A DNA stretch of 64,000 nt, taken from assembly GCA_905116865.2 (NCBI GenBank), contig CAJHNH020000212.1, positions 130,001 through 194,000 on the forward strand. The letters are read 5' to 3'. The notes beneath the pieces are model-generated. The model did not search any database. It was given only the letters and a program-made list of their open reading frames with translations, and was not told the DNA's origin. The translations under genes and the position numbers were made by a program. This stretch comes from Candidula unifasciata (taxonomy: Eukaryota > Mollusca > Gastropoda > Stylommatophora > Geomitridae). Position 1 is the stretch's first letter; each line of letters starts with the position of its first letter. Positions 30,314 through 62,302 of the stretch are shown piece by piece.

Positions 30314-30380
30314 ATGGCCTTAGCTGCACACTTCGTTCTCCTTGGCCTGGCAGTCACATGTGTTCAAGCTACCTTCCCAG
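30314..30380 (+). CDS. Silk-like gene, exon 1: signal peptide
   Basis: ATG at 30314 (A at -3, G at +4) encodes MALAAHFVLLGLAVTCVQA followed by TFP. This is a classic secretory signal peptide: a short start, a hydrophobic core LLGLAV, and an A-x-A-like cleavage site after VQA. The exon ends in G followed by the perfect donor gtaagt at 30381, leaving phase 1. It joins in frame to every later exon called for this gene. The only cysteine visible in the main reading of the protein is in this leader, so the mature protein appears cysteine-free. A 5' UTR splice acceptor may lie at 30280-30281. The product is inferred to be a secreted extracellular structural protein of shell-matrix, capsule or silk type. 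The exact family is not identified. Confidence 0.7.
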
Positions 30381-30414
30381 GTAAGTCAGAGATTCTTGAT
30401 ATCTACAAGTGATG

Positions 30415-31325
30415 TCCAGTTGTTTATTATTCTGCATCCCTCACCCTAACTTGGACTTTATAGTTTCAGCCTGACACTCTGAACTTGACAGTCTCATGCT
30501 GGTCGCCTCAACTTGACAATCTCACCTTGGCAGTCTCAACTTGGTTGTCTCAACGTGACAGTCTCGACATGACAATCTCAACCTGGCAGTCCTAACTTGG
30601 TTGTCCCAACATGACAATCTCAACCTGGCAGTCCTAATTTGGTTGTCCCAACATGACAATCTCGACATAACAATCTCAACTTGAGTCTCAACTTGGTTGT
30701 CCCAACATGACAATCTCGACATAACAATCTCAACTTGAGTCTCAACTTGGTTGTTTCAACATGACAGTCTCGACCTGACAATCTCAACTTGACAATCTGA
30801 AACTGACAGTCACAACTTTACAGTCTCAACTTGGTTGTATCATCACGACAGTCTCAACATGACAGTCTCATGCTGGCCCTCTCAACCTGACAGTCTCAAG
30901 TTGAAAGTCTTAACGTGACATTCCCAAATTGACAATCACAACTTGATAGTCTGAACTTGACAGGTTCCACATGACATTCCCAACTTGACAGTCCCAACTT
31001 GACAGTCCCAACTTGACAGTCCCAACTTGACAGTCCCAACTTGACAGTCCCAACTTGACAGTCCCAACTTGACAGTCCCAACTTGACAGTCCCAACTTGA
31101 CAGTCCCAACTTGACAGCCCCAACTTGACAGTCCCTACTTGACAGTCCCAACTTGACAGTCCCAACTTGACAGTCCCAACTTGACAGTCCCAGCTTGACA
31201 GTCCCAACTTGACAGTCTCAACTTGACAGTCCCAACTTGACAGTCCCAACTTGACAGTCCCAACTTGACAGTCCCAGCTTAACAGTCCCAACTTGACAGT
31301 CTCAACTTGACAGTCTGAAGCTGAC
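30415..31325. repeat. 15-bp minisatellite in intron 1, about 55 copies
   Basis: Unit caacttgacagtccc. The first half (30475-30950) is strongly diverged with mixed phases, and the second half is nearly uniform. It begins within 100 bases of the exon 1 donor. 15 is a multiple of three, which explains the minus-strand open frames. Confidence 0.94.
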
Positions 31326-31489
31326 ATTCCCATATTCACATGATATGCCAGTGACGAGAAATTGGTGCCCGACTCATGGACGGCAAAATACATGAGCGCA
31401 GAAAAATATGTGGAGCGGGAGAAAACATTGATACAACTGGGACTGTACAGATACCAGCACGTTTAAAGGCGACAAGAACCGACCTTAGG

Positions 31490-32255
31490 GCACCAGGTTT
31501 GGACTCGTGTCAGTCTTTCCAGAAGGTACCAGGTTTGGACCTATATCAGTCTCTCCAGAAGACACCATGTTTGGGCCTATATCAGTTTCTCCAGAAGACA
31601 CCAGGTTTGGACCTATATCAGTCTCTCCAGAAGACACCATGTTTGGGCCTATATCAGTTTCTCCAGAAGACACCAGGTTTGGACCTATATCAGTCTCTCC
31701 AGAAGACACCAGGTTTGGACCTATTTCAGTCTCTCCAGAAGACACCAGGTTTGGGCCTATATCAGTCTCTCCAGAAGACACCAGGTTTGGACCTATATCG
31801 GTCTCTCCAGAAGACACCAGGTTTGGACCTATATCGGTTTCTCCAGAAGACACCAGGTTTGGACCTATATCGGTCTCTCCAAAAGATACCAGGTTTGGAC
31901 CTATTTCAGTCTCTCCAGAAGACACCAGGTTTGGACCTATATCAGTCTCTCCAGAAGACACCAGGTTTGGACCTATATCGGTCTCTCCAAAAGATACCAG
32001 GTTTGGACCTATTTCAGTCTCTCCAGAAGACACCAGGTTTGGACCTATATCAGTCTCTCCAGAAGACACCAGGTTTGGACCTATATCGGTCTCTCCAGAA
32101 GATACCAGGTTTTGACTTATATCAGTCTCTCCAGAAGATACCAGGTTTGGACTTGTATCAGTCTCTCCAGAAGATACCAGGTTTGGACTTATATCAGTCT
32201 TTACAGAAGATACCAGGTTTGGACTTATATCAGTCTCTCCAGAAGAACAGTTCGC
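31490..32255. repeat. 36-bp minisatellite in intron 1, about 21 copies
   Basis: Unit contains ggacctatatcagtctctcc and agaagacaccaggttt. Open on both strands because 36 is a multiple of three, so neither the plus frames (31376-32278, 31507-32115) nor the minus frame (31485-32069) is a gene. Confidence 0.95.
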
Positions 32256-60196: not shown

Positions 60197-60984
60197 GTGA
60201 GTTGACAGAGCAGAATGCGAGAAAAACATACAACAGACAAAGTAGCCGGCTTGTATTGCATGTTGCAAGGTGCAACTTGTGATATATGGTGCTAGCTTCA
60301 TATTGTGAACATCACACGGGTGACCCGATCGAAATCATAATTTGTCTTTTCTGCTTAGCGGGGTATTTTCTAGTTCCCAGTTTAGTCGGGGTGAATCTGG
60401 GAGACAAGTCAATGAGGGAATCCCACGAGCTCACATAATGTACCACAAACTGCTCAAGTCAATGAGAGGCCCCAGGAGCTCACAGAATGTACCACTAACT
60501 GCTTCTATTGCTGGTAATCTTCTTTTTCTTCACATTCGTCGGTTGTAAACTCCGTAGGAAAGTTCTGGTTTTTCGTCCCATTATGGACTTTAGATTTTCC
60601 AGAACTGGATTTACATGCACATCCATTTGATATATTTAGCTTATCTGTATGCAGACTGCTGGTTCCTTATCACTCCAGCAGATGCACTCCAACTTTACAA
60701 GACACCTCTAATTAGTAATTACTTTTGAGACATATTTGTTGCGGGGAGGGGGGGGGGGTGGATCTACTTTTTTCGATTTTGTTAAATCAGATTTTATTGT
60801 AATTTAATTTCTTTCCAAACACTGTCACCACTTTGTTATTTTCATATGTGTTCATCTCATTCTTTTATAAAACCATACACCTAAAGTGTTTACATCAGTC
60901 CTCACTCATCTACTGAATGTCACCCTCCATCTCTATGCGTAGTGTTCAGTCTTACACAACTCTAAGTGGCAATGTTTTTTGCAG
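60197..60984. other. Intron of the silk-like gene
   Basis: Contains a two-copy 50-bp duplication (60406-60505, core ctcacataatgtaccac/ctcacagaatgtaccac), the family B repeat and a G-rich run at 60743-60759. No other exon seen. Confidence 0.65.
60530..60745 (-). repeat. Dispersed repeat family B, minus copy
   Basis: gtaaactccgtaggaaagttctgg and gcagatgcactccaacttta match the minus-strand copy at 1700-1850 and the reverse complement of 47060-47225. The (GAA)n tail appears as cttctttttcttc at 60521. Confidence 0.7.
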
Positions 60985-61308
60985 ACAACGGATTGGTTGC
61001 AGCGGGTCCCGGAAATGCCTATGGTACCAGAGTCACATACGATGGAGGTCCCGATGCCTTTGGTACTGCCGCAGCATCCGCATCAGCTTCAGCTTCAGCA
61101 TCATCTGTATTGACAGGAGGAGTAGGAGGAGGTCTTTACGACACAGGTCTGATAGATTTCTTCCCGGGACAAGGACAAGGTGTTGGCACAGCGGCAGCTT
61201 CCGCCTCTGCAGCAGCGACATCTGGAGCATCCGGAGCATCTGGAGCATCTGGAGCATCTGGAGCGTCCGGAGCATCCGGAGCAGGGTTTGCAGCACCCAA
61301 GACTTGGG
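60985..61308 (+). CDS. Silk-like gene, exon 7 (poly-Ala/Ser and SGA repeats)
   Basis: A 324-nt exon (108 codons) after ttttttgcag, phase 1, ending at G before gtcagt (61309). Order: DNGLVAAGPGNAYGTRV; a first Ala/Ser run (AAASASASASASS); GGVGGG; the module motif TGLIDFFPGQG; a second run (AAASASAAATS); about six SGA tripeptides coded by a 9-bp repeat (61220-61285); then GFAAPKTW. This large exon therefore contains the same Ala/Ser block plus L-I-D-F-F-P-G unit seen in the small exons. The composition resembles silk-like and shell-framework proteins, where Ala-rich blocks form beta-sheet crystals. The donor gtcagt is acceptable, not ideal. If it is not used, translation runs on to a stop at 61332-61334. 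Confidence 0.75.
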
Positions 61309-61334
61309 GTCAGTCAAATATCAATTGTGGATGA
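61309..61334 (+). CDS. Alternative C-terminus of exon 7 (intron retention)
   Basis: If the weak donor at 61309 is skipped, the frame continues with GQSNINCG and a TGA at 61332. An ATTAAA hexamer 45 nt later (61379-61384) could serve as a polyadenylation signal. This would give a shorter secreted isoform with the protein's only mature cysteine. Alternative to splicing into exon 8. Confidence 0.35.
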
Positions 61335-62206
61335 CAGGCTTGTGTGGCAAAAGTGTTTGTCCTAATTTTGTATAATTAATTAAACTATTTAAACCCTTAG
61401 TCTCTTACCGACTGGCCGGGGTGATCACACCCCCTCCCTTCCCTGCCCACCGCCATAAGTCAACAGAGAGCATCAATTCGTTTGCTTACATTCGCTAACA
61501 AGAATATATTTCAAATTCCTGTACCCTGTGTTTCTTATGCGTTGCATTATTATTATTGTTATTATTATTATTATTATTATTATTATTATTATTATTATTA
61601 TTATCATTATTATTATTATTGTGTTTCTTCTTCTTCTTCTTCTTCTTCTTCTTCTTCTTCTTCTTCTTCTTCTTCTTCTTCTTCTTCTTCTTCTTCTTTT
61701 TCTTCTTCTTCTTCTTCTTTTTCTTTCTCCCCCTCCTCTTCCTTCTGTGTTAACCCTTTAAAGGGTTTGTGGCACACAGCTAGCAGTGATATCTGAGCCC
61801 TTCGACCACAAATATCCGTTGTCAGCAATCCTAATATATCTCTTCAAACATGCTAATTAAGTGGCAGTGGATCCCTCCTCCCCTCCTTTTTTTTAACCCT
61901 CCCCTTTTCACCCGCACCCAAACAAAACTGAAACTCATGCCAGTCTGTATACTGGTCCTATACTTTATTGATGTGCTTTTATGTGCTCAAATACTTCATG
62001 TTTTTAGATAGTTGTATTGTTGTTTTGTTTGTGTGTGCGCGCGCGTGCGTGTGTGTGTGTGTGTGCGCGGGCGCCTGTAAGTGTGTTAATAAATTCCTAT
62101 ACTTTGACTTGTCATACATTCCCATGTATTGCGTTGTCATAGATTCCTATATTTTGTATTATGCTATATTCCACTAGTGTCCAAACGTGATCTCCTATGT
62201 TTTCAG
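61335..62206. other. Intron with (TTA)n, (CTT)n and (GT)n
   Basis: (TTA)n at 61545-61620, (CTT)n at 61626-61735 and an imperfect GT/GC run at 62031-62073. No gene seen. Confidence 0.75.
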
Positions 62207-62302
62207 ACTCGCCAGCGCCTTCGAGACAGACTGGTCCAGGGGCCTACAATCCCAACGTTGTGGTGGTCTCTGGTAACGACGATGGAAAAGTGAAAGTTGT
62301 TG
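62207..62302 (+). CDS. Silk-like gene, exon 8 (last one in window)
   Basis: A 96-nt exon after atgttttcag, donor gtaagc, phase 1 at both ends. With the carried G it reads DSPAPSRQTGPGAY then NPNVVVVSGNDDGKVKVV. The VVVV-SGNDDG-KVKVV part parallels the SVVVDGGDTTVVHV end of exon 6, suggesting a second duplicated module. No stop codon follows in phase, so the gene continues beyond the window. The rest of the window (62303-64000) showed no further phase-1 exon. Confidence 0.65.

What the first reader, a model, noticed from the sequence alone, without database searches (positions are those of the whole stretch)
30314..62302. A silk-like secreted protein gene built from phase-1 modules over 32 kb
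A signal-peptide exon and six further exons (plus one weak candidate) all end in a single G before GT and begin after AG in phase 1, so they join in frame in any combination. They encode a cysteine-free Ala/Ser/Gly, Asp/Asn-rich secreted protein of silk or shell-framework type. The gene was found only by joining short exons between arrays. It has no long ORF and would be missed by ORF-based annotation. The family is not identified.
Basis: partly seen in the sequence, partly recalled or inferred. Interest (0 to 1): 0.85.

Follow-up and report, generated by a model that had tools for sequence, protein, structure and literature searches.

The report
Snail gene for a silk-like protein
A snail genome contains what looks like a real gene, split into short pieces over 32,000 bases, for a secreted silk-like protein that may help build an outside material such as shell; no relative was found in our searches, but genes of this general kind are common in molluscs.

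Summary
Exons 2-5 are far beyond chance: 4 Gly/Ala/Ser/Asp-rich phase-1 exons with good splice sites on the + strand, 0 on the other, at most 1 in each of 200 shuffles. On the 307-kb contig the signal-peptide exon has the best donor of only 4 such candidates. The window is from a gastropod: a neighbouring 1,864-aa ORF is 45% identical to a Bradybaena land-snail protein. The conceptual protein meets a published 'silk-like structural protein' rule by proxy tests (36% Gly in 80 aa, PMC4944945). No homolog, Pfam or PDB match and no second genomic copy were found.

Corrections: all-phase-1 junctions are largely a by-product of composition. Intron 1 contains 9 kb of homopolymer-inflated, unreliable sequence that could hide exons. 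Exons 6 and 7 and the 3' end are less secure. Expression and tissue are untested. Verdict: probably a real secreted structural gene, a new member of a known kind.

The parts
30314..30380 (+). Exon 1: start codon and signal peptide MALAAHFVLLGLAVTCVQA|TFP, donor G|GTAAGT. A 5' UTR acceptor may lie just before 30282.
   Evidence: Donor score 8.8 and hydrophobic core; best donor of 4 first-exon candidates in 307 kb on both strands
46695..46766 (+). Exon 2: module VGFDAGSNAAAAGTGGLDFFGGSS
   Evidence: Phase 1-1, splice score 9.3
47770..47838 (+). Exon 3: module ASASAGAGVSGRGGLSGIDFTDG
   Evidence: Phase 1-1, splice score 6.8
58906..58977 (+). Exon 4: module GSAFASAGASAGAAGGIDLIGGGP
   Evidence: Phase 1-1, splice score 8.3
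59930..60196 (+). Exon 5: 89-aa Gly/Asp/Asn/Tyr-rich hydrophilic block with DNGYDNGG-type repeats
   Evidence: Phase 1-1, splice score 11.6, highest of the phase-1 candidates of the window on either strand
60985..61308 (+). Exon 6: 108-aa silk-like block with (AS)n and (GAS)n runs and the GLIDFFPG motif; weak donor GTCAGT; an internal acceptor at 61075 scores slightly better
   Evidence: Acceptor 1.7, donor 1.3; composition and frame
62207..62302 (+). Exon 7: 32-aa Pro/Val/Asp block DSPAPSRQTGPGAYNPNVVVVSGNDDGKVKVV
   Evidence: Phase 1-1, splice score 6.6; less certain than exons 1-5
62425..62456 (+). Candidate terminal exon DVAQCDHGEL* (unproven; one of several in the list)
   Evidence: First in the list of phase-1 acceptors after exon 7, acceptor 2.5; the best acceptor, 5.2, is at 64770
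61309..61334 (+). Alternative 3' end: exon 6 read through to TGA (...KTWGQSNINCG*), with ATTAAA at 61379
36650..45640 (.). Homopolymer-inflated, unreliable sequence inside intron 1 (limits set by eye)
   Evidence: Run-length ratio 2.51 versus 1.33 elsewhere in the window

Best explanation
A real, apparently single-copy gastropod gene encodes a secreted, probably mostly disordered structural protein. Shown by sequence: a signal-peptide exon; three ~24-aa exons, each an Ala/Ser/Gly run ending in (L/I)D(F/L)xxG; a Gly/Asp/Asn/Tyr-rich block; an (AS)n/(GAS)n block; all frames join. Inferred: after secretion the Ala/Ser and Gly-Ala-Ser runs associate as beta-type physical cross-links, with the LDFFGG-type motifs as short hydrophobic stickers. 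The acidic Gly/Asn/Asp segments stay hydrated and may bind Ca2+ or mineral surfaces. Together they would give an extracellular gel or framework, most likely shell matrix or periostracum, less likely dart, mucus or glue. The symmetric exons would let modules be duplicated or skipped without a frameshift.
For: Exon anatomy and frame; chance controls; the silk-like structural protein rule met by proxies: max 36% Gly in 80 aa, 114 of 224 windows >=25%, no long hydrophobic segment in the mature part (max 19-residue hydropathy 1.11) (rule from PMC4944945, passages). Recurrent (L/I)D(F/L)(F/I/T)xG motif in exons 2, 3, 4 and 6: it occurs in 0.03-0.07% of shuffles of each exon peptide (the motif was chosen after seeing the sequence). 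Gastropod context: neighbouring ORF 45% identical to a Bradybaena similaris protein. Land snails have secreted Gly-rich mantle proteins (PMC7894901) and an Asp-rich low-complexity shell/dart protein with no homolog except in another land snail (PMC6368272) (passages).
Against: No transcript evidence. No homolog found, although the protein database holds at least one land-snail protein. Linkage of exon 1 to exon 2 crosses 16 kb, 9 kb of it unreliable. The 3' end is unresolved, the exon 6 borders are weak and exon 7 alone is near the chance level. The module similarity among exons 2-4 and part of exon 6 is modest: 4 of 6 protein pairs at p<0.05, with e2/e3 p=0.10 and e2/e6 p=0.27, and 1 of 3 DNA pairs at p<0.05.
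Confidence: 0.72

Rival explanations
1. The exons are real but belong to a different gene model: the signal exon 1 belongs to another transcript, and/or exon 6 is terminal (stop 61332-61334, ATTAAA at 61379), so exon 7 is not part of the main mRNA, or unseen exons lie in the unreliable block.
For: Weak exon 6 donor; ATTAAA 45 bases after the read-through stop; 9 kb of unreliable sequence between exons 1 and 2.
Against: Exon 7 has a fair acceptor and donor in the right phase; exon 1 is the only + strand first-exon candidate within the window or downstream to the contig end at the thresholds used.
Confidence: 0.25
2. A decayed gene: once a silk-like gene, no longer expressed.
For: No expression data; long array-filled introns; no homolog found.
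Against: No stop or frameshift in 967 coding bases and all 12 splice borders kept; strong codon-position bias.
Confidence: 0.07
3. Chance assembly of open stretches in a repeat-rich region.
For: Seven short exons picked by eye; low-complexity peptide; exon 7 alone is near the chance level.
Against: Shuffle and opposite-strand controls; on 307 kb of both strands the same filter lists exons 2-5, two other + candidates and one - strand locus.
Confidence: 0.02

Closest known systems
Silk-like structural proteins (SLSPs) of metazoan biomaterials (McDougall et al. 2016, PMC4944945; abstract, passages and section 15 seen)
   Same: Signal peptide, no membrane segment, >=25% Gly in an 80-aa window, repeated modules, no recognisable homologs
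   Different: Role in a biological material is not tested here; this one also has an acidic Asp/Asn-rich block and short symmetric exons
Repetitive low-complexity shell and dart matrix proteins of land snails (Euhadra Equ21104, Cepaea Cne2744; PMC6368272, passages seen)
   Same: Low-complexity, Asp-rich, gastropod; Equ21104 had no database homolog except Cne2744
Cepaea nemoralis glycine-rich-2 and -3 mantle proteins (PMC7894901, passages seen)
   Same: Secreted, Gly-rich, pulmonate snail
   Different: Those have >50% Gly and 13.1 and 19.2% Tyr; ours has 25% Gly, 2.6% Tyr and 15% Ala
MSI60 silk-like nacre framework protein of Pinctada (features recalled; the name was only a search term)
   Same: Ala runs, Gly-rich and acidic stretches (recalled)
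   Different: No sequence comparison was made; bivalve
Tropoelastin
   Same: Most domains encoded by specific exons (PMC8875079, passages); phase-1 symmetry of elastin exons is recalled
   Different: No Lys-based cross-linking domains expected here (K 1.3%)

Membership tests
Silk-like structural protein (SilkSlider rule) | N-terminal signal peptide | tested here: met
   Hydrophobic core and a VQA|TFP cleavage site by a -3,-1 rule; SignalP itself was not run
Silk-like structural protein (SilkSlider rule) | No transmembrane segment in the mature protein | tested here: met
   Max 19-residue hydropathy 1.11; TMHMM itself was not run
Silk-like structural protein (SilkSlider rule) | >=25% Gly within 80 aa | tested here: met
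   Maximum 36.2%; 114 of 224 windows pass
Silk-like structural protein (SilkSlider rule) | Role in an extracellular biomaterial | not testable with these tools
   Needs expression or proteomics
Molluscan shell matrix protein with low-complexity domains | Present in the shell proteome or expressed in shell-forming mantle | not testable with these tools
   No RNA or peptide data held
Class 1-1 modular extracellular protein | Exons symmetric, both borders in phase 1 | tested here: met
   6 of 6 introns of the model are phase 1
Class 1-1 modular extracellular protein | Known mobile folded domain | tested here: not met
   No Pfam match at E<=1
Tropoelastin | Lys-containing cross-linking domains | tested here: not met
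   K is 1.3% of the 303 aa after the signal
Spidroin or insect fibroin | Conserved non-repetitive terminal domains | tested here: inconclusive
   No Pfam or PDB match at E<=1, but the C-terminus is unresolved; that Pfam holds such models is recalled

The most novel reading that the evidence does not exclude
An orphan gastropod silk made, like tropoelastin, from many short interchangeable phase-1 cassette exons separated by long introns full of tandem arrays, with exon skipping tuning the material; further cassettes may be hidden in the unreadable 9 kb.
Probability: 0.12. Interest if true: 0.55.

Novelty: new member of a known kind. Interest (0 to 1): 0.32.

Why it matters
Shell-forming secretomes of molluscs are rich in fast-evolving low-complexity proteins (PMC4897951, passages) that homology-based annotation can miss (inference). 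A gene split into 67-324-base exons among minisatellites is the sort of case that is easily overlooked. If it is expressed, it adds an Ala/Ser-Gly-Asp silk-like protein with readable modules, useful for asking how such proteins arise and whether splicing tunes a biomaterial. The methodological point is that all-phase-1 exons in a Gly/Ala/Asp-rich secreted protein are largely expected from composition and should not be over-read.

Tried and rejected
Homolog searches with the full conceptual protein and with residues 92-215 found nothing (7,997 candidates scored, E<=0.001; 891 candidates, E<=10). PDB and Pfam: nothing at E<=1. Rfam (gathering scores) and tRNA scans of the window: nothing. Further Gly/Ala/Ser/Asp-rich phase-1 exons downstream to about window position 98600: none convincing; the best by composition was 92230-92280, 17 aa. 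Hidden exons in the unreliable block by homopolymer-compressed blastn: the 20 rows shown were all exon 2 against a control stretch, so this gives no evidence either way. Chance and pseudogene readings are rejected as main explanations. A structure prediction was not run: as I read its rule a spliced protein is not accepted by that tool, and an unaligned low-complexity model would be uninformative. The organism was not identified to species; a search for COX1 in the genome did not complete. Paper searches were used for context; none could compare sequences, and I make no claim that this gene is absent from print or from existing annotation.
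Full report
What is there. After a signal peptide (MALAAHFVLLGLAVTCVQA|TFP; rule-based) come three ~24-aa exons, each an Ala/Ser/Gly run followed by (L/I)D(F/L)xxG; an 89-aa Gly/Asp/Asn/Tyr-rich exon; a 108-aa exon with (AS)n and (GAS)n runs and GLIDFFPG; and a 32-aa Pro/Val/Asp exon. The 303 aa after the signal are G 25.1, A 15.2, S 10.9, D 8.6, V 7.6, N 4.6 per cent, pI 4.4, no Cys.

More than chance. With hand-set generic splice weights, phase-1 to phase-1 open segments with G+A+S+D >=45% and score >=6 numbered 4 on the + strand (exons 2-5) and 0 on the - strand; of 200 dinucleotide shuffles (1-kb blocks) 196 had none and 4 had one. 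Without the total-score cut the count was 6 and 0, with a shuffle mean of 0.10 and maximum 2; the two extra loci are part of exon 6 (61075-61308, with an internal acceptor) and 12782-12835, inside another ORF. With G+A+S+D >=60% it was 5 and 0, with one locus in 1 of 200 shuffles. Exon 7 (38% G+A+S+D) did not pass these filters; it and the full length of exon 6 rest on frame, composition and position. On the 307,201-base contig, both strands, with G+A+S+D >=45% and score >=5, the list holds exons 2-5, two other + candidates and one - strand locus. First-exon candidates (ATG, hydrophobic core, cleavage site, donor >=4): 4 in 307 kb on both strands, exon 1 having the best donor, 8.8. Frame test: of six frames of each of exons 2-7, the used one has the highest G/A/S/D/N/V content and no stop.

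Phase 1 is not itself surprising. In this CDS 56% of codons start with G and 66 of 83 AG dinucleotides end at codon position 1, so introns at AG|G-like sites fall in phase 1 most of the time. With G alone as the rule, six of six has probability about 0.04; with AG, (66/83)^6 is about 0.25 (my arithmetic). The same argument is made in general for class 1-1 modules and for introns next to signal peptides in PMC8001218 (passages).

Internal repeats. Exons 2, 3, 4 and 6 carry the motif (L/I)D(F/L)(F/I/T)xG, at residues 16, 17 and 16 (counted from 0) of the 23-24-aa exons 2-4; shuffling each exon peptide gives the motif in 0.03-0.07% of trials (post hoc motif). Pairwise protein tests over exons 2-4 and part of exon 6: 4 of 6 pairs p<0.05, two not (0.10, 0.27); DNA: 1 of 3 pairs p<0.05. 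Module duplication is therefore plausible but not proven; convergence of low-complexity sequence remains open.

Which animal. The window is C212:130001-194000 of a 1.345-Gb assembly in 7,176 contigs. A single open frame at 7516-13107 (1,864 aa) has two matches at E<=0.001: a hypothetical protein of the land snail Bradybaena similaris at 45% identity over 95%, and an unnamed 1,816-aa protein at 44% over 97%. So the host is a gastropod, probably near the land snails (inference from one named hit); species not determined. It also shows that the protein database holds at least one land-snail protein, so the lack of homologs carries some weight, though low-complexity proteins are easily missed, the candidate list was capped, and how fully snails are covered is unknown.

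Copy number. A six-frame search of the genome with the 322-aa protein at E<=10 returned 7 matches, all of them the seven exons themselves. The tool warns that only the best candidates are scored, so divergent paralogs could be missed; exon-wise searches did not complete.

An unreliable block in intron 1. From about 36650 to 45640 (limits by eye) the mean homopolymer run is about 2.4-2.6 per kb bin against 1.2-1.5 elsewhere, and the run-length ratio is 2.51 against 1.33. It begins and ends next to tandem arrays (34940-36642 and 45643-46389). In the 1-kb profile of the contig only this block and an N run just upstream of the window exceed a mean run of 1.6. I read it as bad consensus sequence, an inference; an attempt to align it to clean sequence found, besides the overlapping locus L001 itself, only short or weak matches. 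Any exon inside would be unreadable, so the length of intron 1 and the exon count are provisional.

The 3' end. No convincing further Gly/Ala/Ser/Asp-rich phase-1 exon was found for about 35 kb beyond the window. Possible ends are read-through of exon 6 to TGA at 61332-61334 with ATTAAA at 61379, or exon 7 followed by a terminal exon, for which 62425-62456 (DVAQCDHGEL*) is the nearest of several candidates and 64770-64828 has the best acceptor, 5.2. Each of these three would add one Cys.

What it is like. The published SilkSlider rule (signal peptide, no membrane segment, >=25% Gly in 80 aa; PMC4944945, passages and section 15) is met with 36%. That paper reports that most such proteins appear restricted to a particular lineage, and that two in abalone are expressed in nacre-forming mantle. 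In land snails, Euhadra has a shell/dart protein with four Asp-rich low-complexity domains and no homolog except in Cepaea (PMC6368272, passages), and Cepaea mantle expresses secreted Gly-rich proteins (PMC7894901, passages); PMC4897951 (passages) reviews such domains in shell secretomes. I could not compare sequences with any of these. Membership in the SLSP class by its sequence rule is met by proxy tests; shell matrix membership is untested.

Mechanism, with status. Shown: secretion signal by rule, composition, modules, frame. Inferred: self-association of Ala/Ser and Gly-Ala-Ser runs, hydrophobic LDFFGG-type stickers, hydrated acidic segments that may bind calcium, disorder, and assembly into an extracellular framework. 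Not shown: expression, tissue, splicing, presence in shell.

Verdict. A real-looking secreted structural gene without a recognised family; ordinary in kind, useful as an example. Interest 0.32.

Noticed in passing
window 7516-13107 (+): Single open frame of 1,864 aa with no Pfam domain (E<=0.1), 45% identical over 95% to a Bradybaena similaris hypothetical protein (BsWGS_21490); a conserved gastropod gene in one long exon.
   Followed up: partly
window 36650-45640: Homopolymer-inflated sequence (run-length ratio 2.51 versus 1.33) between two tandem arrays, probably bad consensus.
   Followed up: partly
window 53243-53593 (-): Reverse transcriptase fragment (Pfam RVT_1, E 3.7e-7) inside intron 3.
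   Followed up: no
window 15012-58852, many places: Dense minisatellites with 31-46-base units (for example 55055-58852, 20906-22493, 16584-17998) in and around the introns.
   Followed up: no
window 49556-50535: 36-base array of about 27 copies at 99% match, open in two + frames and one - frame.
   Followed up: no
L006 7501-10000 (contig C212 just upstream of the window): Run of 2,500 N directly before the window start; assembly gap or withheld stretch.
   Followed up: no
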